Assembly: GCA_902526075.1 (NCBI GenBank)
Contig: CABZJM010000010.1
Coordinates: forward strand, 1-52,215
DNA from: an uncultured Bacteroidota bacterium
GTDB taxonomy: Bacteria; Bacteroidota; Bacteroidia; Flavobacteriales; Flavobacteriaceae
DNA: 52,215 bases
Reading direction: 5' to 3'
A model generated the notes under the pieces. That model had not been told where the DNA came from, searched no databases, and saw only the letters and a program-made list of their open reading frames with translations. This document shows positions 2,253 to 43,559 of this stretch, piece by piece (the first letter of the stretch is position 1; each line of letters begins with the position of its first letter). The position numbers and the translations under genes were made by a program.

Positions 2253-3833
2253 CTATTTAATACCGGGCTGTTTTAACTCCCAATTTTCCTCAAGCTTTTT
2301 TTCGTCTACCATTTGTTTTACTTCAAGTAATAATCTTTTTGCATCATAAATTATTCCGTCTTTGATAGTAAATTTTACCCCACCAGACCTTATTACCTCA
2401 TTTTTTTCGTTTAGTTTTATTGCCCCTGTTCCATACAAAGATTTTAAATTTTCTAATGGGTTTTCATCTGTAATTACAAAGTCTGCATATTTTCCAACTT
2501 GTACACTACCAATCTTATCGTCCATTTTCAGTGCTTCAGCTCCATTCAATGTAGCTGCACGAATAATCTCAAGCGGATGGAATCCAGCTTCTCTAAGAAG
2601 TTCAAGCTCTCTAATATATGCAAACCCGTATAGTTGGTATATGAAACCTGAGTCTGAGCCTACAGAAACTCTACCGCCTCTATTTTTGAATTCGTTGATA
2701 AATTTCATCCACAACCTATAATTTTCTCTCCATTCAACCTCTTGCTCAGTACCCCAATAATGCCAATATGATCCGTGAGAAATTCTGCTTGGTTCGTAAA
2801 ATCTCCACAATGAGGGGAGTGTATAATCTTCATGCCATTCAGCCCTTCTAGCTCTATGTAAATCGCGGTTAGCCTCATATATATTAAAGGTAGGCACGAT
2901 AGTAAAGTCAAGAGAAATAAGTTCATTCATCACATTATTCCAATGATCAGAGTAGGGTTCAGCAGCTTGTGTCCATAGTTTTCCCGCTTCTTCAAATCTG
3001 TGTTGTTCATTTTGGTAATTATAATTTGGGGGGTAATTCTGAACAGTCCTATCATTAAACAATGCCTCTGGTAAACCATACCAATGCTCCATTGATGTTA
3101 ACCCTGCTCTAGCAGAATTTAATACATTCCATCTGGCTACACTTAGCTGAGCATGGTGCATAGCAGAGCCTAAACCTAATTTTTTATTCTCATCTAATGC
3201 GGCTTTCATTATTTCAGGTTCAGCTCCAAAAAATTTAATTCCATCAGCTCCTTTTTTTGCATTTGCTCTAACCCAAGTTCTTGCCATTTCTGGTGTACTT
3301 ATTGGTAAATCATTAAGAGGGTTGAAGACTTTACTTTTCTGTCCAAAACTAGTGTAGGCAAAAATTCTAGGAGCTACAATTTTATTTTCGGTACTCAATT
3401 TTTTTAAATTGACAGCCCAGTCAACTCCTCTTCCTCCTGGTTCTCTGACAGTGGTTATTCCATGAGCCATCCAGAGTCTAAAAACATAGTCATAATCTGC
3501 ACCTTGTCCTGTACCTCCTATATGACCATGCATGTCAATAAAGCCTGGAAGCAAAAACATTCCGTTTGCATCTAATTCAAATCCACCTTTCATGAGTTTG
3601 GGTCTAGATGAATCTTTTATTTCAACTCCGGGGTATCCTACACTTTTAATATTAACGATAATATTATTTTCAACAACGATATCTACAGGTCCCCTGGGTG
3701 GGGAGCCATCTCCATTGATTAAAGTTACACCTCTAATTATAAGTTGGTCATAGGGTCCGTCACCTAAATATTTTTCCTGAGAAAATCCATTAAATACAAA
3801 TAAGAGAATAAATAAAGAAATATATTTTTTCAT
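2253..3833 (-). CDS. Secreted amidohydrolase family protein
   Basis: A 526-residue metal-dependent hydrolase with a signal peptide (residues 1-18, ending NGFSQ). The amidohydrolase HxH motif is FIDMHGHIGG (H102, H104). It is followed by a MHHAQ/TSMEHW region in the middle of the barrel, and SVGSDSG provides the late metal Asp. The C-terminal IGSVQVGKYADFVI is the family's beta-sandwich signature. This group includes prolidase-like and imidazolonepropionase-like enzymes; the substrate cannot be read. The gene lies just downstream of the M14 peptidase on the same strand, with an 8-bp gap once the M14 frame is repaired. The pair probably forms an operon for periplasmic peptide degradation. Confidence 0.85.
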   Translation of the reverse strand: MKKYISLFILLFVFNGFSQEKYLGDGPYDQLIIRGVTLINGDGSPPRGPVDIVVENNIIVNIKSVGYPGVEIKDSSRPKLMKGGFELDANGMFLLPGFIDMHGHIGGTGQGADYDYVFRLWMAHGITTVREPGGRGVDWAVNLKKLSTENKIVAPRIFAYTSFGQKSKVFNPLNDLPISTPEMARTWVRANAKKGADGIKFFGAEPEIMKAALDENKKLGLGSAMHHAQLSVARWNVLNSARAGLTSMEHWYGLPEALFNDRTVQNYPPNYNYQNEQHRFEEAGKLWTQAAEPYSDHWNNVMNELISLDFTIVPTFNIYEANRDLHRARRAEWHEDYTLPSLWRFYEPSRISHGSYWHYWGTEQEVEWRENYRLWMKFINEFKNRGGRVSVGSDSGFIYQLYGFAYIRELELLREAGFHPLEIIRAATLNGAEALKMDDKIGSVQVGKYADFVITDENPLENLKSLYGTGAIKLNEKNEVIRSGGVKFTIKDGIIYDAKRLLLEVKQMVDEKKLEENWELKQPGIK

Positions 3834-3841
3834 TTTAAAAT

Positions 3842-3994
3842 TTAATTAGTTGGGACTGAAATATTGTTGCCTAAAAATATTGCATTTAGAAATAACTTAT
3901 TAGTTCCATACCAAGTTCCTCTAAAGTTTGGATTATCAGCAAATACTACAACTCTACCAGATCCAGCTTTAGAAATAATTGTTCTTAGTTTTAT
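3842..3994 (-). pseudogene. Out-of-frame C-terminal fragment of the M14 peptidase
   Basis: Read on the minus strand in the frame of the stop at 3842-3844, this stretch encodes KLRTIISKAGSGRVVVF, then ADNPNFRGTWYGTNKLFLNA and a short tail ending ISVPTN. This is the usual C-terminus of secreted Bacteroidota M14 peptidases. It is not in frame with the main gene, whose stop falls at 3969-3971, and the fragment frame has its own upstream stop at 3995-3997. The junction lies in the A-rich stretch 3972-3994. A sequencing or assembly error is a real alternative to a mutation. Confidence 0.8.
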
Positions 3995-6266
3995 TTATAA
4001 ATACATTATTATTCTTGTACACTGGAATAGAATTATCGTTATAGCCAAAAGCAATAGGATGAGTTAAATCTATATCAGCTTTTAAAATAACACCACCTAT
4101 TCTTTCCCTTCCGATAAACTCTCTTGCATCAACATAATTTTTTCTTGGGTGAGTTGAATCTTTTTTTGACTCAACTAAACTTTCATTTATAAGTTTTTTG
4201 CTGATAGCCCAACTTGAACCCCCAGCTATTGTAATCAAAGTGTTTCCCTCCTCAACCCATTTTTTTATCTTTTTTACTTCATCTTTTCCTAATTGATTAT
4301 AGGAGCCTGAAACCATTATCAGAGTCGTATATTTTTTTAATGATATTGCTGAAAATTGACTAAGTTTTAATTTAGTTAATGGTAGACCGATTCTTGTGTC
4401 TAACAGATGCCAAACCTCCCCTGCCTCATATGAATTTACCCCTTCACCAATTAATAATGCAACCTTAACAGGCTTATTTATTCTAAAATTATTACTTCCT
4501 AAATCAATTCCTTTAAGACTATAACCAGATTCTGAATTATAAACAGGAATCTCAAATCTATTTTGCATTTCAATAATAATATCAAATAGTTTTTCAGAGG
4601 ACATATTTTGTTTACTAACAGGAATTAATACTGAACCATAATTAAATTTCTTAGACGAATTCGTTCCGTTCACTTTAATTGTAAACGGCTTGAATGCTGA
4701 ATATGTAACAATTCCATTTTTTTGTAAGTGATTCAATGCGGCAGGTGAGTTATAATCATCCCAGTCCATTACATAAGCATAATTAGACATCTTTGGCTTT
4801 AAATTTTTTACAAAACCTTTGATAGTCTTTATTTCGGATTCACCAAAAAAACTTTTAAGCTCTTTTGATTTCATATTATATACATTCGATACGCTCCAAG
4901 CAGAAGCATCATAGAACACACTGTCAACATATTTACTATGTGTCTCAAAGAAATTTTTGACCATTCTAGATTGTGGTTGGTTGACAGGAACAACAAATTT
5001 ACCTTTGCTGTAGTATACTTTGATTTTATGTAATAATAATTTGTCAATAAAGGCTTTATTTCTGTTTTGATCATACATGTCACCAAACTCATAAGCTTTT
5101 ACTTTTTCGTTTTTAAACTCTGTGACTGAAGAATTAAAGAATCTCATTTGATAATCTCTTAGCAGTTCTTGGTTATCAACTGCGGCCTCAACCGTGGCAA
5201 TACTTGATAAATATTGGTTTCTAATTGTAAATCCAAAAGACATTGTTCCGTAGTTGGTTTCCTGTAAGTGCCCCCTTGAACTTGCCTGTTCAAATAGTAT
5301 TGCTACAGCGCCTTGAACATCAGGATATGAGGAGCCATAGCCTGGATAAGTTTCATCAAATGATTCTTTGGTGTAGTAAAAGGAACCAATACTATCGAGT
5401 GCTTTAACATAGTACTCAGCAAAAATCGGACTTAAAACACTGTAGTTTTCATCGGGAATCATAGGTTTTACTGATGCATTTCTTTTCATTGGTTCAAAGA
5501 AATAATTACTATTCGTACCCATTTCGTGAAAATCAGTAACAACATTTGGATACCAGCTGTGATACCATTCTAATTTACCTCTGCTTTCCGGATTAATTCC
5601 TAATAACCAATCTCTGTTTAAATCAAACCAATAGTGATTTGTTCTGCCTCGTGGCCATGCTTCATTATGCTCAGCATCATTACTATCTGCAACAAGATTA
5701 ATTGATTTATATTGATTTGCCCATTGTGAATGCCTATCTCTTCCATCTGGGTTGATTGTTGGATCAATAAAAATAACCGAGTTTTGAATTAATCTTTTGA
5801 CTTTATTGTTTTCGGATGCAACCAGCGTGTAGGCTGCTAGTATTGCAGCTTCAGCACTAGATGGTTCATTGCCATGCACACCGTATCCTAAATTTACAAT
5901 TATCGGTAAGCTACTATCAATTTTTGTTTTTGTCCCAGGAACAGTATGCTTAAGATGTTCATTCTTGATTTTTTCTAAATTATTTAAATTTTCTGTTGAT
6001 GAAACGGTAAGCATAATTAAATCTCTACCTTCATGAGATTCACCGTATTTTATGATTTGAGCTTTTTCAGAAATATTCGACAAATATTTTAGATAAGCCA
6101 CAATTAGATCATGACGAGTGTGTTCAAAGCCAATTTCATAACCAAGATATTCTTCAGGGCTTTGAATATTATTATCATACGGGCCGTTATTTTCAAGGAA
6201 ATAATCCTGAGCTGTAGCTGTATATAAATTAAAAATAAAAGCTATAAATATTGTTGTTAATCTCAT
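3969..6266 (-). CDS. M14-family zinc carboxypeptidase, C-terminus broken by frameshift
   Basis: A secreted peptidase (signal peptide 1-19, ending YTATAQ). Zinc ligands are in GVHGNEP (H131, E134) and the later TDFHEMG histidine. The catalytic Glu is in LFEQASS, and INPDGRD is typical of the family. A second domain (after about residue 450) resembles the glutamine amidotransferase-like fold often fused to Bacteroidota M14 peptidases. The frame ends early with VFINKTKNNYF. The expected family C-terminus is encoded just downstream in another frame (3842-3994), so about 30 residues plus the frame are lost. The catalytic part is intact and the protein may still work. This could be a real mutation or an assembly error. 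Confidence 0.85.
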   Translation of the reverse strand: MRLTTIFIAFIFNLYTATAQDYFLENNGPYDNNIQSPEEYLGYEIGFEHTRHDLIVAYLKYLSNISEKAQIIKYGESHEGRDLIMLTVSSTENLNNLEKIKNEHLKHTVPGTKTKIDSSLPIIVNLGYGVHGNEPSSAEAAILAAYTLVASENNKVKRLIQNSVIFIDPTINPDGRDRHSQWANQYKSINLVADSNDAEHNEAWPRGRTNHYWFDLNRDWLLGINPESRGKLEWYHSWYPNVVTDFHEMGTNSNYFFEPMKRNASVKPMIPDENYSVLSPIFAEYYVKALDSIGSFYYTKESFDETYPGYGSSYPDVQGAVAILFEQASSRGHLQETNYGTMSFGFTIRNQYLSSIATVEAAVDNQELLRDYQMRFFNSSVTEFKNEKVKAYEFGDMYDQNRNKAFIDKLLLHKIKVYYSKGKFVVPVNQPQSRMVKNFFETHSKYVDSVFYDASAWSVSNVYNMKSKELKSFFGESEIKTIKGFVKNLKPKMSNYAYVMDWDDYNSPAALNHLQKNGIVTYSAFKPFTIKVNGTNSSKKFNYGSVLIPVSKQNMSSEKLFDIIIEMQNRFEIPVYNSESGYSLKGIDLGSNNFRINKPVKVALLIGEGVNSYEAGEVWHLLDTRIGLPLTKLKLSQFSAISLKKYTTLIMVSGSYNQLGKDEVKKIKKWVEEGNTLITIAGGSSWAISKKLINESLVESKKDSTHPRKNYVDAREFIGRERIGGVILKADIDLTHPIAFGYNDNSIPVYKNNNVFINKTKNNYF

Positions 6267-6348: not shown

Positions 6349-6954
6349 ATGCGATTGATTTTACTTTTTATTGTTTTTTTATTTTTTTCATGTAGAAGTG
6401 AAAAGAGATATGAAGATTTCAATTTAACCGAATATCAAAGGGAGGTTAATAATTATTTTAAAGACGCTTCTGTTTCCCCGCTCAAGACTAAAGATCTAAA
6501 AAATTTTAAAGGACTTGATTTTTTTGAATTTGATTCGTCATATGTTGTTTATGCTAAAATTCAGAAGACACCCAATAGCTTACCTTTTAAAATGAAAACA
6601 ACCACTAATATGCCAGCTGATTTTAGAATGTATGGAAAATTAATATTTAATCTCAATGATGAGCAACATTCATTAACAGTTTATGAAAATCTTGATTATA
6701 TAGGTGTGGATGGCTATAAAAATTATTTATTTCTTCCATTTCTTGATCAAACAAATGGATATGAAACTTATGGAGGTGGTAGATATATGGACCTATACCA
6801 ATATGATAATGATTCCATACTAATCAATTTCAATCGGGCATATAATCCTAAATGCGTCTACGATGAAAATTTTTCATGTCCGATTGTTCCAAGAGATAAC
6901 TTATTAAATCTAAGAGTTGAAGCAGGGGTTAAAAACTTTGTCAAAAATTATTAA
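6349..6954 (+). CDS. DUF1684 lipoprotein
   Basis: A 201-residue protein with a short lipoprotein signal, the lipobox being FFSC with Cys15 as the probable lipidated residue, so it should sit in the cell envelope. The body carries the DUF1684 signature: an MPADFRMYGKLIF-like strand, a central FLPFLDQTNG, a glycine-rich YGGGRYMDL, and an ending with NPKCVYDENFSCPIVPRDN. The family has no firmly known function. The gene is divergent from the M14 peptidase and its stop is 2 bp from the convergent crcB stop. Confidence 0.85.
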   Translation: MRLILLFIVFLFFSCRSEKRYEDFNLTEYQREVNNYFKDASVSPLKTKDLKNFKGLDFFEFDSSYVVYAKIQKTPNSLPFKMKTTTNMPADFRMYGKLIFNLNDEQHSLTVYENLDYIGVDGYKNYLFLPFLDQTNGYETYGGGRYMDLYQYDNDSILINFNRAYNPKCVYDENFSCPIVPRDNLLNLRVEAGVKNFVKNY

Positions 6955-35308: not shown

Positions 35309-35380
35309 GCCGGTGTAGCTCAGTGGTAGAGCGCTTCCTTGGTAAGGAAGAGGTCAGGGATTCAATTTCCCTCACTGGCT
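35309..35380 (+). tRNA. tRNA-Thr (GGT), integration target of the element
   Basis: 72 nt. Acceptor GCCGGTG pairs with CACTGGC (one G-T pair), anticodon stem CTTCC/GGAAG with loop TTGGTAA, anticodon GGT. The T arm is AGGGA/TCCCT. The 18-bp segment 35338-35355 recurs exactly at 39857-39874, where a different T arm follows. The 3' half of this tRNA therefore appears to have been supplied by the inserted element, keeping the gene functional. Confidence 0.95.
35338..35355 (+). repeat. attL core (within tRNA-Thr GGT)
   Basis: CTTGGTAAGGAAGAGGTC covers the anticodon loop, the 3' side of the anticodon stem and the variable region of the tRNA. The same 18 bp occur at 39857-39874. Tyrosine recombinases commonly cross over in the anticodon arm. 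Confidence 0.85.
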
Positions 35381-35421
35381 CATCTGTAAATTAGCCTTTT
35401 ACTACTTCCTTATTTATTCAC

Positions 35422-35447
35422 TCACTGAACTTATAGTGAACTTATAA
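35422..35447 (+). repeat. Left arm-type repeat of the element
   Basis: Two head-to-tail units ACTGAACTTAT and AGTGAACTTAT. The 26-bp block matches the block at 39737-39762 at 23 of 26 positions in the same orientation. It lies 67 bp inside the left att core. Probable integrase arm-binding sites. Confidence 0.65.
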
Positions 35448-35495
35448 GGATTTTTTTTTCATTTTAGGCTTATTCTGTATGTAAAGCCTTTTCCC

Positions 35496-35861
35496 TTAAG
35501 CATTAAACATTTTATTTAAATCTTGTACTAAACCTAAATCTGTATTATCTAGACTTTCTAGGGTCTCTTTCATAACCTTTTCTCTTTCTGTTACATCATT
35601 CCCTTTGTTATCTAGAATGGTTATTTCAACCTGTTGAGGTCTCTCTTCAGTATTTAAATCTATGACTTGAGATTGTAGCTTTGGTATAGCATACTGCAAA
35701 CAAACTTGTATGAGCTTAATCTTTTCAAGCTTTGATAGTGTATCAATATCTAAACTTTCCATAGTAACATCTATAATGTCCCCAATCTTGCTTCTTAAAT
35801 CACTTGTTAATCTGTTGGGTGTGCCTTTTATTCTACCACCAGTTTTATATCCTTTTGCCAT
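35496..35861 (-). CDS. Small terminase-like / DNA-binding protein of the element
   Basis: A 121-residue protein beginning MAKGYKTGGRIKGTPNRLT. The GGRxKGTPN motif opens many small DNA-binding proteins of Bacteroidota phages and mobile elements that are placed near or called small terminase subunits. A helical middle (KLEKIKLIQVCLQYAIPKL) and an acidic C-terminus follow. If it is a TerS homologue, it could direct packaging of the element by a helper phage. It is the gene nearest attL and last on its strand. The motif match comes from memory and the function is not proven. Confidence 0.55.
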   Translation of the reverse strand: MAKGYKTGGRIKGTPNRLTSDLRSKIGDIIDVTMESLDIDTLSKLEKIKLIQVCLQYAIPKLQSQVIDLNTEERPQQVEITILDNKGNDVTEREKVMKETLESLDNTDLGLVQDLNKMFNA

Positions 35862-35890
35862 AATCTATTAATATCTACTTTACATACTTA

Positions 35891-35939
35891 GGGGTTCAGA
35901 GATGTGAACTGGATAGGTAATGTTACAGAATAGAACCCC
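35891..35939 (-). other. Long-loop inverted repeat between two element genes
   Basis: GGGGTTC (35891-35897) and GAACCCC (35933-35939) are exact complements around a 35-nt loop, in the 95-bp gap between the 181-residue and 121-residue genes. It may form an RNA hairpin in their joint transcript, or be a protein site or replication origin feature. Confidence 0.35.
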
Positions 35940-35956
35940 CTTGTATGACCCTGAAA

Positions 35957-36502
35957 TCACAGGTTTGGAATATATTTATTTCTTGTATAATCAAACTTTA
36001 TAAATGCTGAAACTCCTCTTTGAATATCTATTGGATATATCTTGGTGTACTTAGAAACCATATCTAAACTATGTATGAGCTGATTGGCTCTAATTACCTT
36101 TTCATTTTCCTCTTCTGTTGAGGTATATCTGGTATAATCTTCCAAAGAAACTCCAGTAACGAAATCATCTTTATCTACATATACATTGGCTTGAATACTC
36201 TCGTATTGCTTCTGTATTGAATAAAGTTTTGTGATATGAATGTCTAAAAGAAAATGTAGCTTCTCAACTGCTATTTCTTGTTTAACTATATCGCCTTTCT
36301 GTTGAACTACTTGCCTGTTGAACTCCTCAACCATATCTGACAGAAATTTCTTTCTATCTATCTTATCAGTATCGATATGCTTAGCGCACCATTCAAGACC
36401 GACTTCAATAACTTTGATTTTACTTTCTGCATCTTTTACTGCTCTATTATAAGCTGATACATCTTCATAGACTTTCATCTTTACAAATTCTTTTGATTTC
36501 AT
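35957..36502 (-). CDS. Unknown element protein, helical (181 aa)
   Basis: I do not recognise a family. The protein is mostly helical and charged, with a coiled-coil-like stretch at about 60-105 (VEEFNRQVVQQKGDI to SIQKQYES). The C-terminal third (SKYTKIYPIDIQRGVSAFIK) may be a small folded domain. There is no signal peptide or membrane segment. An internal ATG (MKVYEDVS) eight codons in is an alternative start. It lies on the same strand as the integrase and the terminase-like gene, 18 bp from the divergent small membrane-protein gene. Confidence 0.65.
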   Translation of the reverse strand: MKSKEFVKMKVYEDVSAYNRAVKDAESKIKVIEVGLEWCAKHIDTDKIDRKKFLSDMVEEFNRQVVQQKGDIVKQEIAVEKLHFLLDIHITKLYSIQKQYESIQANVYVDKDDFVTGVSLEDYTRYTSTEEENEKVIRANQLIHSLDMVSKYTKIYPIDIQRGVSAFIKFDYTRNKYIPNL

Positions 36503-36520
36503 ATTTATTATATTTGGTTA

Positions 36521-36748
36521 ATGTTAAATACTTTCTTTTTTGGTTATCTCCCTTTAAAATGGAAACGACTTGCAAGAGTTTTATCCTTTATAACTTCTCC
36601 TTTAATGGGTTATGTCTTTGTTATTACTGATGCTTTATATATTGGTTGTTGTGTTGATGAAGAAAACTTCATTATAGGTTCAGTAGCTCACATAGTATCA
36701 GTTATTATTATTAGCTACACCCTAAAACCTTTTGTAGTCAAAGACTAA
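36521..36748 (+). CDS. Small membrane protein of the element (75 aa)
   Basis: Two clear hydrophobic segments (about residues 22-45 and 52-68) following a basic, aromatic N-terminus (GYLPLKWKRLARVL). It is one of only two plus-strand genes in the element, divergent from the 181-residue gene by 18 bp and overlapping the convergent 71-residue gene by 4 bp. No family is recognised. A role in superinfection exclusion or as a holin-like protein would be guesswork. Moderate confidence that it is a real gene. Confidence 0.5.
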   Translation: MLNTFFFGYLPLKWKRLARVLSFITSPLMGYVFVITDALYIGCCVDEENFIIGSVAHIVSVIIISYTLKPFVVKD

Positions 36749-36960
36749 AGCTGACTAACCTGTTTGATAAACTCTTCTAATAGTTGCTCGTTTGAACTAT
36801 GTTTTCCTATGGCTCTAGACATCATATCTAAGTGCTTTTTTTGAACCTTTACATTCAACTCGATATACTTGTTTTTCCTAGCCTTTTTTAAGGCAGTAAC
36901 TTGCTTATCGTTATATACTTCGATATCTGACTCATTCCCTCGAAATCTAAATAATGTCAT
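36745..36960 (-). CDS. Unknown small basic element protein (71 aa)
   Basis: A charged, helical protein with a basic middle (VTALKKARKNKYIELNVKVQKKH) and a C-terminal helix ending FIKQVSQL. The short strand YIELNVKV followed by two helices is compatible with a ribbon-helix-helix type DNA-binding protein, but I cannot assign it. The start overlaps the end of the 45-residue RHH-like gene by 14 bp, in the same direction, so it is probably translated from the same mRNA. Confidence 0.5.
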   Translation of the reverse strand: MTLFRFRGNESDIEVYNDKQVTALKKARKNKYIELNVKVQKKHLDMMSRAIGKHSSNEQLLEEFIKQVSQL

Positions 36961-37084
36961 CAGCCAGTGCTTTGAGGGTTATCATTCTGACTAAGCTACT
37001 TTTAGCTAGACCTTTTCTTTGCGCTTCTCTGACTATTTTGTCATAGGATTGCTTCTTGAACTTTACTAATATTTGTTCTTCCAT
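36947..37084 (-). CDS. Ribbon-helix-helix-like mini protein (45 aa)
   Basis: An ATG at 37084 directly follows the stop of the 179-residue gene (TAAATG) and opens a 45-codon frame ending at 36947. The protein begins MEEQILVKFKKQSYDKIV, a beta strand then a helix. A turn around RKGLAKSS leads to a second helix (LVRMITLKALAD). This is the layout of ribbon-helix-helix repressors and relaxosome or copy-control proteins. It overlaps the next gene by 14 bp. Likely a DNA-binding regulator of the element. Short length limits certainty. Confidence 0.55.
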   Translation of the reverse strand: MEEQILVKFKKQSYDKIVREAQRKGLAKSSLVRMITLKALADDII

Positions 37085-37624
37085 TTAATAATATAAATTG
37101 TGATAGCTGAGGGACTTCCCTATATGTTTTGTAAAGTATCCCATACCATCTGTTAAACTATGAGTATCTCTTAAATACTCCCTATTAATTCTCATATAAC
37201 TTGCTAGAGAATTTTTACTTAAATAATTGCCTTTATAGGCAAAATGAATATTGTTACTGAGCCTATGTACATATCCAGTATCCTTATCAATATCTGGTTC
37301 AATACACGCCCATACAAAATCTATGTTGTTACGCTTAATTAGGTTATTCATATACCAGTCAACTTGCTTAGAATGTAACTTATCACTGGTGGTATCATTA
37401 TAGATGCTATACTCATCTTTTACTGCTTTGTTTACTTTAAATATGTTTGAATCATATCTTCTGTATCTTATAATATTATGATGTGTAAAACCCATACTAG
37501 CTAAACTTTTACCATACTCAATTCTATTTGCTACATTCATACCTTTAAGTTGTTTAAGGATACAAGAACGCCCTTTGCATAAACGCCTATATACTATTAA
37601 CAAGCTATCTATATAATTTTGCAT
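37085..37624 (-). CDS. Unknown element protein, possibly Rep-like (179 aa)
   Basis: No family is firmly recognised. The C-terminal half has the order of a rolling-circle Rep nuclease: a strand FVWACIEPD, a LSNNIHFAYKGN segment in the place of the HUH motif (but with Asn for the first His), and GMGYFTKHIGK resembling the YxxK motif with the catalytic tyrosine. The N-terminal half is basic and helical. At 179 residues it lacks a helicase domain. It heads a tight minus-strand operon with the RHH-like and 71-residue genes. A replication role would fit, but this is a weak inference. Confidence 0.55.
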   Translation of the reverse strand: MQNYIDSLLIVYRRLCKGRSCILKQLKGMNVANRIEYGKSLASMGFTHHNIIRYRRYDSNIFKVNKAVKDEYSIYNDTTSDKLHSKQVDWYMNNLIKRNNIDFVWACIEPDIDKDTGYVHRLSNNIHFAYKGNYLSKNSLASYMRINREYLRDTHSLTDGMGYFTKHIGKSLSYHNLYY

Positions 37625-37735
37625 TTTTGTTTATGAAATATTACTGGAAATATACTCTCAACAGAGAAGAATCTGTTAATAAGTTTTTTCAAACCTAAAT
37701 TTTGCAACTCTCTATTAGAGCTATCTTGTCTAACT

Positions 37736-37924
37736 ATGAATTGTGTACATTGTGGTGCTGAATGCTCCGATAATAATTTTGATGCTTACCCACTATATCC
37801 AAAAGATAATGTCGTTTGTGGCAAGTGTGTTTTTGAAGTAATCTTTAAAAAGAATGATTGTAGGGTAACTGGTATTAAATACTGGAAATATGACTGGAGC
37901 TACTATCCTTTAAAGCCTGTTTAG
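37736..37924 (+). CDS. Small zinc-ribbon-like protein (62 aa)
   Basis: Two CxxC knuckles, MNCVHCGAEC and NVVCGKCVFE, 26 residues apart, could bind one zinc ion as in rubredoxin-like ribbons. A tyrosine/tryptophan-rich tail (YWKYDWSYYPLKPV) follows. It lies on the plus strand, convergent with the integrase gene and overlapping its end by 4 bp. Small zinc-ribbon proteins are common in phages and mobile elements; the role is unknown. Confidence 0.55.
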   Translation: MNCVHCGAECSDNNFDAYPLYPKDNVVCGKCVFEVIFKKNDCRVTGIKYWKYDWSYYPLKPV

Positions 37925-39714
37925 TTACGCTTTATTTTACTACTCTCTATTTGCTCTTTTCTTTCTTTTATTAAGTCTTTTAATTCTTTTGAGTAGGTTA
38001 CTTTTCCTCTGACTGCATTACCATCATCATCTATATCATCAAATACAACATCATTCTCTTTATTCATTAATCTTTGATACTCTTCCTCTTTACGCCAAGA
38101 CCAGTAGGATAGGGGTATTTCTAGAGCTTCTAACTCATTCTTTTTAACCATAGGACTCAAACCATCTAGCTTAATTAAAGGACGCTCTAAGCCTTTGTAT
38201 TGAAATGTCTGTTTATTGCAATATTTAACCAGTAGCTTAAGCACTTTATTGATGCTGTAAGACTTCAAAACTTCTACTTGTAAAATATCCATTTTGTATT
38301 GTGGAATCTTAACATAACGCTCGATTAATTTCTTCTTTCTATGTCCTAATGATACTGATAATAATCTTTCAGCACCATTACCACCATACACAATACTTAA
38401 TTCTCTTGTAAAAGTATGTCTTGTATGCTTTAGCTTACCATTTATACCGCATAACTTCTTTAGCTCTTTTGTGTAAGTACCTTGTAAGTTCTTCCATTTC
38501 TTTTTACCACTTTTGGAAAAGTAATCTATATTGTAGAGCTTCATAGGGTCATCCCCTTTATATAAAAGTTCTGGTCTGTTAATGCTTATCATATGCTTTA
38601 ACAACCTATGAATAATTAGGGTAGGATAGTGGTTGAAGAGAATTCTAATACCTACTGACTTTCTACTTGTTTTCTTTCTGTAACCCCTTATATAAACCTT
38701 TTTATCAGTAGCTTCAAACCTATTTGGAATCTTACTTAATAGATGCTTTACATCTTTAAAATTAGGGTCACCATCAAAAGTGTATTTATTAACCAGATTT
38801 GTGTAATTAGGTATGTAATGCATAATGTCTTTGGGGTCTACTTTATTTCCCTTTTCATCTTCTAGCCAGTTCTTATCCATTATACATATATCAGCACCAT
38901 CTACACCCCTTAAGCTAAACGCTAAAAGCCAGAATAGGTATGCTTCCAGCCAATATGTGTTGTTGCCTATTTTTAGTATGCCTTCACTTAATTCAGACCT
39001 CAACAAGAACTTATTTTGTTCTGTTTGACTATCATCAGCAACTTCAAACTTATTCTTGAATACTTGAGCATCACTAGTGTTAGGATTTACAAAGGATGCA
39101 TAGTTGAGGCTTTCTAGATATCTGTTCTTTGTTTCGTTGTTTGCTCCTTTATGTTTCTGCAATAACTCTTCTATTGTAGATATATGGTGACTTGATAATC
39201 GTAAGTGTGACCATCTTAATCTTTGATATTGTATTGCACCAGAATCATACAGGGCGGTTTGAACTGCATTAATGTGTTTTATATGTTTTTCAATAGCATC
39301 ACCAGTAATAAGGTTTCCCTTTCTATTACGCCTCTTGATTTTGCAGAACTTCTCAAATGTATCTAATACTTCACCATCTTTAACAATATTTAATATCTGG
39401 TCAAATGCCTGTAAGTGATTTATCTTGCTTTTATGTAAGTCTAATAATATGGATGGCTTTTTTGCTTCAAAGTCTTTTAACCATTCTACATACTTAAGAT
39501 ACTGCTGGTGATAATCTTGTTTTATCTCTTGCTTCTTTTTATTCCACGCTATCATAGGAATGGTGATAGGGGTAGCCTTAACTGATTTCTTACCGCTACC
39601 AAACTTATGAGTCAAGTAAAGTCTTTTCTCAGATTTACTGGATGGTTGCCATCTTTCATTAAATCCTATCCTTAAGTTGTGTTTAGAGCTTTTTTGTCTT
39701 GTGACCGCTTCCAT
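37921..39714 (-). CDS. Large tyrosine recombinase (integrase of the element)
   Basis: At 597 residues it is much longer than a Xer protein (about 300). The catalytic set is recognisable in the C-terminal half: R269 (FSLRGVDGADI), the KHTRHTF motif with R432 and H433 (Lys429 in the usual HxxR first position), H458 (SLGHRKKK) and nucleophile Y467 (ERYVKIP). About 120 extra residues follow the tyrosine. The first 240 residues hold the basic arm-binding and core-binding parts. It begins 143 bp from attR, the classic position. It should excise and integrate the 35338-39874 element. Confidence 0.88.
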   Translation of the reverse strand: MEAVTRQKSSKHNLRIGFNERWQPSSKSEKRLYLTHKFGSGKKSVKATPITIPMIAWNKKKQEIKQDYHQQYLKYVEWLKDFEAKKPSILLDLHKSKINHLQAFDQILNIVKDGEVLDTFEKFCKIKRRNRKGNLITGDAIEKHIKHINAVQTALYDSGAIQYQRLRWSHLRLSSHHISTIEELLQKHKGANNETKNRYLESLNYASFVNPNTSDAQVFKNKFEVADDSQTEQNKFLLRSELSEGILKIGNNTYWLEAYLFWLLAFSLRGVDGADICIMDKNWLEDEKGNKVDPKDIMHYIPNYTNLVNKYTFDGDPNFKDVKHLLSKIPNRFEATDKKVYIRGYRKKTSRKSVGIRILFNHYPTLIIHRLLKHMISINRPELLYKGDDPMKLYNIDYFSKSGKKKWKNLQGTYTKELKKLCGINGKLKHTRHTFTRELSIVYGGNGAERLLSVSLGHRKKKLIERYVKIPQYKMDILQVEVLKSYSINKVLKLLVKYCNKQTFQYKGLERPLIKLDGLSPMVKKNELEALEIPLSYWSWRKEEEYQRLMNKENDVVFDDIDDDGNAVRGKVTYSKELKDLIKERKEQIESSKIKRN

Positions 39715-39736
39715 AAAAATATTACCTTTTACAGAG

Positions 39737-39762
39737 TCACTGAACTTTTACTGAACTTTTAA
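39737..39762 (+). repeat. Right arm-type repeat of the element
   Basis: Two units ACTGAACTTTT and ACTGAACTTTT in tandem, 95 bp inside the right att core and 23 bp upstream of the integrase start. Same orientation as the left copy with three mismatches. Besides integrase binding, it could serve autoregulation of the integrase promoter. Confidence 0.65.
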
Positions 39763-39856
39763 CGATTTGTTTATTTAACCAGTAAACACTATCTTTACTC
39801 TGTATATCCAATGTAAATATACAAAAAAAAGTAATATGACAAACAGGATGCGGTTA

Positions 39857-39904
39857 CTTGGTAAGGAAGAGGTCCCGAGTTCAATTCTCGGCATTGGCTC
39901 ATCT
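39857..39904 (+). repeat. attR: displaced 3' half of tRNA-Thr
   Basis: Begins with the 18-bp core CTTGGTAAGGAAGAGGTC, then a T arm CCGAG/CTCGG with loop TTCAATT and acceptor strand CATTGGC-T, then CATCT, as after the intact tRNA. There is no 5' half upstream, so it is not a tRNA gene. It is probably the original chromosomal 3' end pushed aside by integration. Confidence 0.85.
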
Positions 39905-40027
39905 TTTAGAGCTGTTATATAATCTTCCATTTATTTTGTTATGGTTAAAAATAGGATAAATATAATTTTGTCTTTTTTTTTGTACTTTTCTTTAGTGAAA
40001 AAGCCAAAGTCAAAAACAATCAATACT

Positions 40028-40480
40028 ATGAAAAATTTAGTTTTATTTTCTCTTATTTTTTTATTTACAAATTCAATTTATGCTCAAAAAATAAAAAAAT
40101 CTCATTTGAAATCATTAGATAGAAGGGCAGAGTTAATTCAGCTAAAACCCATTGATAAAAATGATTTAATTTACATTGGTGATATAACTACAAATAAGGG
40201 GAGAGATAAGGCAAGAATGAAGCAGGAATTTGTGAAATATTTTGGGTTAAACGGATTTAAACTAACTACTGATAAAAAAAGTGCAAAATTAATAATTGAG
40301 GGTGGTTATAGTCATGACTTAATAGCGCCAAGCCAAATCTTAGGTTTTGATATCAATATTAGTAATAATGAAGGATTATTAGTTGTTACCTATTCTAAAA
40401 GAAGTAATAGTTTTGTGGGTCCAGTATTTGATACTGCAATTGTTTCATACCTTGTTAGTAATCTGAACCTTACAGATTAA
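40028..40480 (+). CDS. Small secreted protein between two att scars (150 aa)
   Basis: The ATG at 40028 gives a clear signal peptide (MKNLVLFSLIFLFTNSIYAQ), better than an upstream ATG at 39941. The mature part of about 130 residues has alternating strands (LIYIGDIT, KLIIEGGYS, GLLVVTYSKRSNSF) and no recognised family. It is the only gene in the 0.6-kb stretch between attR and the third tRNA remnant, so it may be cargo of an older insertion or a host gene captured between sites. No membrane segment besides the signal. Confidence 0.65.
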   Translation: MKNLVLFSLIFLFTNSIYAQKIKKSHLKSLDRRAELIQLKPIDKNDLIYIGDITTNKGRDKARMKQEFVKYFGLNGFKLTTDKKSAKLIIEGGYSHDLIAPSQILGFDINISNNEGLLVVTYSKRSNSFVGPVFDTAIVSYLVSNLNLTD

Positions 40481-40502
40481 AATCGTATTAAGAAAGTTTT
40501 TT

Positions 40503-40547
40503 CCTTGCTAAGTAAGAGGTCCCGAGTTCAATTCTCGGCATTGACTC
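40503..40547 (+). repeat. Third, degenerate tRNA-Thr 3' half (older att scar)
   Basis: AAGAGGTCCCGAGTTCAATT and the following CTCGGCATTG are identical to attR, but the anticodon part reads CTTGCTAAGTAAG instead of CTTGGTAAGGAAG, and the acceptor has one change (TTGACTC). It marks a second insertion or duplication event at the same tRNA, about 600 bp beyond attR. Confidence 0.8.
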
Positions 40548-40739
40548 TTACTTATTTTCAAATCTACCCCAATTACCACCACCATCATAGTCATTTTCAT
40601 CAGATTGATTAAGTAGCTTTTCGTCTTTTTCCCTTCTTCTTCGTTGATCATCGTGAGAAGATTTAATCATCCAGAGTAATCCAGACATGTAAAGCAGGAA
40701 TATTATAAATCCGATTATAAACATTAATGGGCTTAACAT
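40548..40739 (-). CDS. Small single-helix membrane protein (63 aa)
   Basis: One N-terminal membrane helix (MLSPLMFIIGFIIFLLYMSG) followed by a basic then acidic hydrophilic tail with DYDGGGNWGRF. Its stop lies directly against the third tRNA remnant (40547). It is 3 bp downstream of another tiny membrane-protein gene on the same strand, probably in one operon with the DoxX-like and flavodoxin-fold genes. No family recognised. Confidence 0.55.
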   Translation of the reverse strand: MLSPLMFIIGFIIFLLYMSGLLWMIKSSHDDQRRRREKDEKLLNQSDENDYDGGGNWGRFENK

Positions 40740-42941: not shown

Positions 42942-43559
42942 ATGAGAAATTCCATCAGGTTAGCTTATGACCATTTGACAAAAGATAAAGTAATGTCCTT
43001 TCTAATTGATAAATTTCATGATAAAATTGATTGGGGCAACAGATATAATTCAAATTATCCCCTTTCTATTGCGAACCTTATTATTGAACAGCAAATAAGT
43101 TTCAAAGCAGCGATAACTGTTAAGAAAAGATTTGCAAAAATAGTTGATAAAAAATCTCAATCTGAAATAATTAAAATTTCAACTACTGATCTTCAGTCTA
43201 TCGGGATTTCCTTCCGTAAAGCAGAATATATTAAAAATGTTTTCCGTTTTTTTAAAAATAAAACTATTGATTTTGATAAAATGTCAGACAAAGAGGTTAT
43301 TGATTGTTTAGTTGCAATTAAAGGCGTAGGAGAGTGGACAGCTCAGATGTTTTTAATATTCAATTTATTTAGGCAAGATATTTTTTCTCCCAAGGATTTG
43401 GCATTAATCAATAGCATAAAGAAAAATTATCTGATGGAGTCAGTTGGAAAAGTTGAAATTGAGAAACTAACAAGAAAATGGGCCCCTTATAACTCGATTG
43501 CATGTCTTTTGCTCTGGGAATCAGTAGAAAATCAGATTTTTTTCAAAGACCATAAGTAG
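42942..43559 (+). CDS. DNA-3-methyladenine glycosylase II (AlkA-like)
   Basis: A base-excision repair glycosylase of the HhH-GPD superfamily, 205 residues, lacking the N-terminal domain of E. coli AlkA. The helix-hairpin-helix is VAIKGVGEWTAQMFL (about 124-138). The catalytic aspartate is D152 in FSPKDLALI. The family opening LIIEQQISFKAA lies at residues 47-58. It removes alkylated bases such as 3-methyladenine. It is 6 bp after the membrane-protein gene. Confidence 0.88.
   Translation: MRNSIRLAYDHLTKDKVMSFLIDKFHDKIDWGNRYNSNYPLSIANLIIEQQISFKAAITVKKRFAKIVDKKSQSEIIKISTTDLQSIGISFRKAEYIKNVFRFFKNKTIDFDKMSDKEVIDCLVAIKGVGEWTAQMFLIFNLFRQDIFSPKDLALINSIKKNYLMESVGKVEIEKLTRKWAPYNSIACLLLWESVENQIFFKDHK

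What the first reader, a model, noticed from the sequence alone, without database searches (positions are those of the whole stretch)
35338..39874. Compact ~4.5-kb integrative element in tRNA-Thr(GGT), with no known class
Seen: an 18-bp perfect direct repeat of the tRNA anticodon arm at both ends, a 597-residue tyrosine recombinase next to the right end, and seven other small genes with no obvious transposition, conjugation or capsid genes. Known: tyrosine integrases often use tRNA anticodon arms. Inference: a very small satellite or mobilizable island not matching a named group I know. It splits the normally conserved tRNA-tuf neighbourhood of Flavobacteriia.
Basis: partly seen in the sequence, partly recalled or inferred. 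Interest (0 to 1): 0.78.

Follow-up and report, generated by a model that had tools for sequence, protein, structure and literature searches.

The report
Tiny tRNA-targeting mobile element with cassettes
A 4.5-kb piece of mobile DNA has inserted itself into a threonine tRNA gene of an uncultured, probably marine bacterium, at a spot where related species hold interchangeable single-gene inserts with similar ends, which hints at a small gene-swapping system.

Summary
A 4,519-bp element (35338-39856) sits in tRNA-Thr(GGT) with an identical 18-bp core at each end. It brought its own tRNA 3' half; joining the flanks restores a tRNA identical to 15 of 16 copies from relatives. Two distant relatives of its integrase lie in other genera of the family, both at tRNA-Thr(GGT), integrase beside the far att; one (G615, 5.1 kb) keeps four genes in order. 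In the window and G615 elements the only 11-bp-period repeats lie near the two ends (0 of 400 shuffles): likely integrase arm sites.

The larger finding lies outside the given coordinates. A third tRNA half at 40504 bounds a one-gene segment. Seven of 15 relatives with downstream sequence carry such integrase-less cassettes here; 6 of 10 left arms show an 11-bp repeat at matching spacing. One cassette is 97.5% identical between species whose flanking genes are 68-84% identical. I infer one-gene cassettes moved by integrases in trans; not shown, and arm sequences differ. Arrays with and without integrases at one tRNA or tmRNA are known, so: a new variant of a known kind.

The parts
35309..35381 (+). 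tRNA-Thr(GGT), the target; bases after 35355 are the 3' half carried in by the element
   Evidence: ARAGORN; comparison with 16 copies from relatives
35338..35355 (+). left core (attL), identical to 39857-39874
35426..35447 (+). left arm: direct repeat TGAACTTATAG/TGAACTTATAA, period 11, proposed integrase arm site
35496..35861 (-). TerS-like 121-aa protein (N-terminus MAKGYKTGGR.KGT.N)
   Evidence: 39% identity over 82 columns to the G615 counterpart; same N-terminal motif in small ORFs just upstream of TerL in L153 and L154
35957..36502 (-). 181-aa conserved element protein, function unknown (coiled-coil is my guess, untested)
   Evidence: 44% identity over 179 columns to G615 counterpart
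36521..36748 (+). 75-aa probable membrane protein (own reading)
   Evidence: 42% match in G303 in a stretch with tRNA-Asn, L161, E 3e-13
36745..36960 (-). 71-aa protein, perhaps a small DNA-binding protein (own reading)
   Evidence: similar to G615 72-aa protein, z 7.0, 0 of 1000 shuffles
36947..37084 (-). 45-aa ribbon-helix-helix-like protein (own reading)
   Evidence: phrog_26865 E 0.003, unknown function
37085..37624 (-). 179-aa protein in the place of a Rep-like gene of the G615 element
   Evidence: same position as G615 141-aa protein with HFH and YVTKY motifs (PF23343 E 0.063, below cut-off); similarity only z 1.5 to 2.1
37736..37924 (+). 62-aa zinc-ribbon-like protein (CxxC pairs, own reading)
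   Evidence: PF23895 E 0.047, below cut-off
37921..39714 (-). 597-aa tyrosine recombinase; R269, R432 and Y467 invariant in three relatives, H458 in two of three
   Evidence: alignment A1; motif positions
39741..39762 (+). right arm: direct repeat TGAACTTTTAC/TGAACTTTTAA, period 11
39857..39901 (+). right core (attR, 39857-39874) and native tRNA-Thr 3' half
39902..40503 (+). one-gene cassette: left arm with a 9/11 period-11 repeat at 39943, then gene
   Evidence: arm 89% identical to the type-A arm of G305
40028..40480 (+). cassette gene, secreted-protein-like (ORF open from 39941; start at 40028 fits a signal peptide, own reading)
   Evidence: no significant family hit
40504..40548 (+). third, degenerate tRNA-Thr 3' half closing the cassette

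Best explanation
The element is an integrative mobile element of an undescribed family whose tyrosine recombinase targets tRNA-Thr(GGT). Shown by comparison: it entered a native tRNA-Thr, replaced the tRNA 3' half with its own and displaced the native half to the right end; related integrases lie at the same tRNA in two other genera. Inferred: the integrase binds the core in the tRNA and paired 11-bp-period arm repeats near both ends and excises a 4.5-kb circle, and the circle is passed on with a helper, possibly a phage (TerS-like gene), perhaps after replication by a Rep-like protein. The same tRNA holds one-gene cassettes without an integrase, with similarly built left ends, at least one of which has moved between species; I infer that integrases of this or a similar kind move them in trans.
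For: tRNA 3'-half swap and restored site. G311, the relative nearest by the protein at 42942-43559 (94%), lacks the element and has a native tRNA followed by a cassette with a similar arm. Both strong integrase relatives are at tRNA-Thr(GGT), integrase next to the far att. Gene order shared with G615: integrase, a gene at the Rep position, 71/72-aa, 181/183-aa and TerS-like. Period-11 repeats: window and G615 each have two sites, one near each end; shuffle mean 0.08 sites, 0 of 400 shuffles with both ends, for each element; the period was noticed in the window and cassettes first, so G615 is the independent test. Cassette left arms: 6 of 10 have a 10/11 repeat 42-44 nt after the tRNA, the element's own is at 43, and 0 of 7 flanks without arms have one. 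A cassette shared at 97.5% DNA identity between G303 and G306, six flanking genes 68-84%.
Against: No circular form, excision or transfer was seen. The arm words of the element (TGAACTTATA) differ from those of the cassettes (AGGTCAAAT, AGGATAAA), so this integrase may not serve them, and no integrase with the cassette arm words was found. Cassette right ends hold no such pair; five of the right ends aligned share about 50 bp and two of those are the same cassette. 4 of 10 cassette left arms lack a 10/11 repeat, and the arms are related by descent, so the counts are not independent. The second shared cassette (G306/G310, 97.0% DNA) is only mildly above its flanking genes (83-91%). The TerS-like motif also occurs in phages near an integrase with no terminase annotated in the 9-10 kb shown. 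The 179-aa protein lacks a clear HUH motif and is only marginally similar to the G615 protein. The G593 island (about 22.5 kb) has no left repeat, identical tRNA halves at both ends and none of the other element genes at E 1e-3.
Confidence: 0.72

Rival explanations
1. The element is a phage satellite in the PICI/PICMI/VEIME sense, packaged by a helper phage through its TerS-like protein; the one-gene cassettes are unrelated to it.
For: Compact size; TerS-like gene whose N-terminal motif matches ORFs just upstream of terminase large subunit in L153 and L154, kept in G615.
Against: No primase, AlpA, repressor or capsid-size gene was hit in Pfam, PHROGs or NCBIfam for the window proteins, nor in Pfam or PHROGs for the G615 proteins scanned. 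No relative of the integrase or of the Rep-position proteins in viral contigs or phage records, by searches that mostly reach close relatives. The TerS-like motif also lies near integrases in two Bacteroides phages, no terminase annotated in the stretch shown.
Confidence: 0.35
2. The one-gene segments are decayed remnants (CIME-like) of larger islands left by accretion and deletion, and do not move by their own att sites.
For: Several closing tRNA halves are degenerate (window third copy, G311, G314, the middle copy of G312, the last copy of G303). CIME accretion is described for ICEs and IMEs (PMC5704250, passages) and considered for ssrA islands (PMC3146451, passages).
Against: The closed segments are regularly one main gene long, most with a common left arm and five with a common right end; random decay would not readily give this. 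Recent transfer of a whole cassette.
Confidence: 0.3
3. Cassettes are exchanged by homologous recombination through the conserved tRNA cluster and downstream genes, with no site-specific enzyme.
For: The 347-bp tRNA cluster is 92-97% identical in 16 of 20 relatives. In the G303/G306 pair the left arms are of different type (73% identical) though the proteins are 99.7% identical, as a crossover near the gene start would give.
Against: The right context of the shared cassette differs between G303 and G306; in G306 it is followed by a second cassette. The closed segments end in a tRNA half.
Confidence: 0.25
4. Assembly or amplification chimera.
For: Incomplete draft genome (62% complete).
Against: Cassettes in 7 separate relatives and a related element in another genus; the tRNA 3'-half swap is exact.
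Confidence: 0.02

Closest known systems
Additive flexible genomic islands at tRNA-Lys of Methylophilaceae (PMC10872708, passages)
   Different: No arm repeats or integrase family for these islands in the passages seen; different bacterial group and tRNA
Dehalococcoides ssrA islands (PMC3146451, passages)
   Same: Tandem islands at one RNA gene, 16 with an integration module and 15 without, the latter possibly cis-mobilizable
   Different: Serine recombinase, tmRNA target, rdhA-bearing islands rather than one-gene cassettes
Tycheposons and VEIMEs (named in PMC10803314 and PMC10872708, passages)
   Same: Marine, integrated elements; tycheposons have a tRNA border, a tyrosine recombinase and 4-200 kb
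   Different: No sequences of either were compared here; the window element shows no recognisable metabolic cargo
PICMI satellites (PMC10803314, passages)
   Same: Very small marine element with few genes
   Different: PICMI require int, alpA and primase, and the prototype sits by fis; no alpA or primase hit here
Integrons and CALIN arrays (PMC11389934, passages)
   Same: Cassettes at one site, integrase supplied from elsewhere in CALINs
   Different: Here the boundaries are tRNA 3' halves; no attC model was run and no integron integrase was seen

Membership tests
tRNA-targeting tyrosine-integrase element (general) | Integrase next to one att; tRNA restored; displaced 3' fragment at the other end | tested here: met
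tRNA-targeting tyrosine-integrase element (general) | Tyrosine recombinase catalytic residues | tested here: met
   R269, R432, Y467 invariant in A1, H458 in two of three; no Pfam Phage_integrase hit, hhalign aligns only box I, so the class rests on motif and on weak matches of residues about 412-476 to other integrase-like ORFs
PICI / PICMI satellites | AlpA-type regulator and primase | tested here: not met
   no hit in Pfam, PHROGs, NCBIfam
PICI / PICMI satellites | Induction and packaging by a helper phage | not testable with these tools
   needs culture; the TerS-like gene is only a hint
Tycheposon | tRNA border and tyrosine recombinase | tested here: met
Tycheposon | Integrase homologous to tycheposon integrases | not tested
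   no tycheposon sequences at hand
IME / ICE | Relaxase or conjugation genes | tested here: not met
   no hit; a divergent relaxase would be missed
Integron / CALIN | attC sites and IntI-type integrase | tested here: inconclusive
   boundaries are tRNA 3' halves; no attC model was run
CIME (for the one-gene cassettes) | attL and attR without integrase or transfer genes | tested here: met
   8 closed segments with a gene in 7 relatives, and the window's
CIME (for the one-gene cassettes) | Derived by decay of an integrase-bearing element | tested here: inconclusive
   no integrase remnant noticed among listed ORFs of the cassettes, common arms instead

The most novel reading that the evidence does not exclude
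tRNA-Thr(GGT) in this genus is an integron-like platform: the tRNA 3' half acts as the attachment site, one-gene cassettes with their own, perhaps promoter-bearing, left arm and paired 11-bp-period integrase sites are inserted next to the tRNA, and the integrase comes in trans from small tRNA-Thr elements like the one in the window. Cargo includes defence-like and secreted proteins.
Probability: 0.38. Interest if true: 0.8.

Novelty: new variant of a known kind. Interest (0 to 1): 0.58.

Why it matters
How small-genome ocean bacteria gain single genes is an open question. A tRNA-based cassette system would give a route for exchange of one gene at a time, with defence-like genes among the cargo (AIPR, PD-(D/E)XK nuclease). 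It also gives an integrase family whose arm sites can be read from sequence, so predictions about which cassettes it can move are testable.

Tried and rejected
Structure prediction of the integrase (mean pLDDT 33.7) and of the 179-aa protein (45.2) was too poor to use; fold searches with the latter gave no match at E 0.001 or better in either library. PDB sequence search with the integrase gave three matches at E 1.4 to 2.3, taken as chance. hhalign of the integrase against profiles of nine and of four other recombinases aligned only the box I region, with low probability. A Pfam scan of its catalytic part alone gave no integrase hit. The foreign T-arm was sought, exact letters only, in 397 family genomes; only the window itself matched. 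Viral contigs were scanned eight times: integrase, TerS-like, 179-aa protein, G615 Rep-position protein, integrase alignment and three DNA patterns; only the TerS-like query gave relatives. The type-B arm searched in 397 family genomes gave 4 short hits, none over the whole arm, not followed. An alignment search for the integrase in 376 genomes of the order gave only the window at E 1e-8. The 44 of 397 genomes are the window, G615, G593 and 41 weak ones (E 1e-4 to 0.01), which I do not count as members. The idea that the 179-aa protein is an intact HUH Rep was dropped. One of 7 stretches (a Tannerellaceae contig) was not followed.
Full report
Observation. The window (G000:C10, a 1.24-Mb, 62% complete assembly) has tRNA-Thr(TGT), Tyr, Gly and Thr(GGT) in a row. 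The core CTTGGTAAGGAAGAGGTC stands at 35338 in tRNA-Thr(GGT) and again at 39857. The element is 35338-39856. I take eight ORFs as genes: a 597-aa recombinase on the minus strand next to the right end and seven small ones. No hit reaches a Pfam or NCBIfam cut-off and no PHROGs hit is better than E 0.003.

Proof of integration. The genus search covers 21 genomes. I fetched 17 stretches from 16 of the other 20; G298, whose contig ends at the tRNA cluster, and G299, G300 and G302, without a full match to the cluster, were not fetched. Of the 17 stretches, 16 contain tRNA-Thr(GGT) (15 genomes, G297 twice, one of its contigs ending at the tRNA); the G296 stretch does not. All 16 copies have the native 3' half; the window has another one, and the native half lies at 39857-39901. 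Joining the flanks gives a tRNA identical to 15 of 16; the other (G309) differs by one base. The foreign 3' half, exact, was found in no other of 397 family genomes. G311, nearest by the protein at 42942-43559 (94%), has a native tRNA and no element.

Relatives of the element. At E 1e-10 the only match in 296 genomes of the order is the window itself; within the genus one other match has E 0.08 (G302). No match at E 0.01 in phage or plasmid records, none in viral contigs by peptide patterns, which reach close relatives. In 397 family genomes 44 had a match at E 0.01 or better: the window, G615 (8.5e-43), G593 (1.6e-13) and 41 weak ones. An alignment search in 376 genomes of the order found only the window at E 1e-8. 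G615, of another genus, has tRNA-Thr(TGT)-Tyr-Gly-Thr(GGT) and an element of 5,106 bp from core 5372 to core 10478 of L186, each core with one mismatch to the window's; its two tRNA halves differ as in the window. Its genes match those of the window in order: integrase 33.5% over 597 columns, 183-aa protein 44%, TerS-like protein 39% (compared with ten proteins only), and a 72-aa protein (z 7.0). It has three more genes near the tRNA, one with an HNH domain (PF01844). The gene at the Rep position has HFH and YVTKY motifs and a sub-threshold PF23343 match (E 0.063); the window protein there is only marginally similar (z 1.5 to 2.1). In G593 an integrase (25% over 516 columns) lies beside a tRNA half about 22.5 kb from tRNA-Thr(GGT); the halves are identical, the genes between read as metabolic (own reading), and none of the other element genes is found at E 1e-3. 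R269, R432 and Y467 are invariant in the three integrases.

Arm sites. One search showed, among periods 8 to 24, best repeats of period 11 in the window element and in several cassette arms. I then looked in whole elements for period-11 repeats with at least 10 of 11 identical. The window element has two sites, 35426 and 39741; the G615 element has two, 5458 and 10362 of L186; in both they lie near the two ends in the same orientation. Dinucleotide shuffles give 0.08 sites on average; 1 of 400 shuffles has two or more, and 0 of 400 has sites at both ends, for each element. G593 has three copies near the right att and none at the left. I read these as binding sites of the integrase arm domain; this is inference.

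The cassette hotspot. Of 15 relatives with sequence downstream of tRNA-Thr(GGT), 7 have further tRNA halves (G312, G311, G314, G305, G303, G310, G306), 4 have the next conserved gene within 45 bp (G304, G309, G297, G315), and 4 have other inserts or spacers without a second half at up to 3 mismatches (G313, G301, G308, G307). The 7 hold eight closed segments with one main gene each and no integrase (G312 two), one gene-less 100-bp segment (G303), and in G306 a second, unclosed segment. The window has one closed segment to the right of the element. For arms I took 10 cassette or cassette-like left ends (window, first of G312, G311, G314, G305, G303, G310, both of G306, G308) and the element; I left out the second segment of G312 and the short one of G303, which show no arm. 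Seven flanks without arm hits served as control. A 10/11 period-11 repeat stands 42-44 nt after the tRNA in 6 of 10 cassette arms and at 43 in the element; 0 of 7 control flanks have one, though two have a T-rich 9/11 match at position 1. The window cassette has a 9/11 form; G311, G308 and the second of G306 have none. The arms are related by descent, so these are not independent counts. The repeat words differ: AGGATAAA (type A), AGGTCAAAT (type B), TGAACTTATA (element). Five right ends share about 50 bp (G312 first, G305, G303, G310, G306 first); the other four cassette right ends aligned do not.

Movement. The G303 and first G306 cassettes are 97.5% identical over 1,169 bp, proteins 99.7%; six flanking genes are 68-84% identical in DNA (tuf 84%). 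A second cassette is 97.0% identical between G306 and G310, flanking genes 83-91%, a weaker case. The left arms of the first pair are of different type, so a crossover near the gene start, homologous or site-specific, seems to have happened. Cargo by Pfam: AIPR (G312 second), PD-(D/E)XK nuclease (G314), kelch with Por tail (G311), DUF285 (G305), alpha/beta hydrolase-like (G303/G306, below cut-off; G308), TPR (G312 first), none for the G310/G306 protein.

Arm searches in the genus found near-whole arms only at this tRNA, other hits being short. The pattern search of named genomes gave 7 stretches: 6 from uncultured Bacteroidetes isolates AG-461-G08, AG-917-J15, AG-461-C17, AG-333-B03, AG-337-I03 and AG-333-D18, whose contig lengths equal those of G312, G310, G311, G303, G306 and G305, and one Tannerellaceae contig not followed. 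That AG names denote single-cell genomes of a tropical ocean survey is recalled.

Mechanism. Shown by comparison: integration at tRNA-Thr with exchange of the 3' half, the same tRNA in 3 of 3 members found, and transfer of a cassette between species. Inferred: arm function, excision, trans-action on cassettes, helper. A TerS-like gene suggests a phage helper: its N-terminal motif occurs in ORFs directly before terminase large subunit in L153 and L154 (Terminase_6N E 1.9e-8; L152 weaker, below cut-off), but in two Bacteroides phages it lies near an integrase with no terminase annotated in the 9-10 kb shown.

Known kinds. Repeats of a tRNA end bounding additive islands are described in Methylophilaceae (PMC10872708, passages), and arrays with and without integration modules at ssrA in Dehalococcoides (PMC3146451, passages). 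CIME accretion is reviewed in PMC5704250 (passages). Searches aimed at the same thing gave nothing on it by title: 1 paper with 5 of 6 terms; 0 papers; 31 papers, 15 listed. Nine paper searches were run in all. Only open-licence papers are held, so this is no proof of absence. I therefore call it a new variant of a known kind.

Noticed in passing
L161 (G303:C1:70000-78000), 6546-6773: A 42% relative of the window's 75-aa protein lies in a stretch that also has tRNA-Asn and integrase pieces with stops, so that small gene may travel on other elements too.
   Followed up: partly
G297:C9 end, G298:C8 start: Two contigs end at tRNA-Thr(GGT) itself, as can happen where cells or copies differ; may mark variation there.
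   Followed up: no
L187/L188 (G593:C3): An island of about 22.5 kb with genes that read as aldehyde dehydrogenases, a sulfatase and a TonB-type protein lies between tRNA-Thr(GGT) and a related integrase (own reading).
   Followed up: partly
L050 (G312), 3243-4445 of the turned sequence: A cassette codes for an AIPR protein (E 6e-22), a family linked to phage defence (recalled); G314 has a PD-(D/E)XK nuclease in its cassette.
   Followed up: partly
L186:10524-11273: A leucine-rich-repeat gene follows the right att of the G615 element and may be another cassette; the contig ends there.
   Followed up: no
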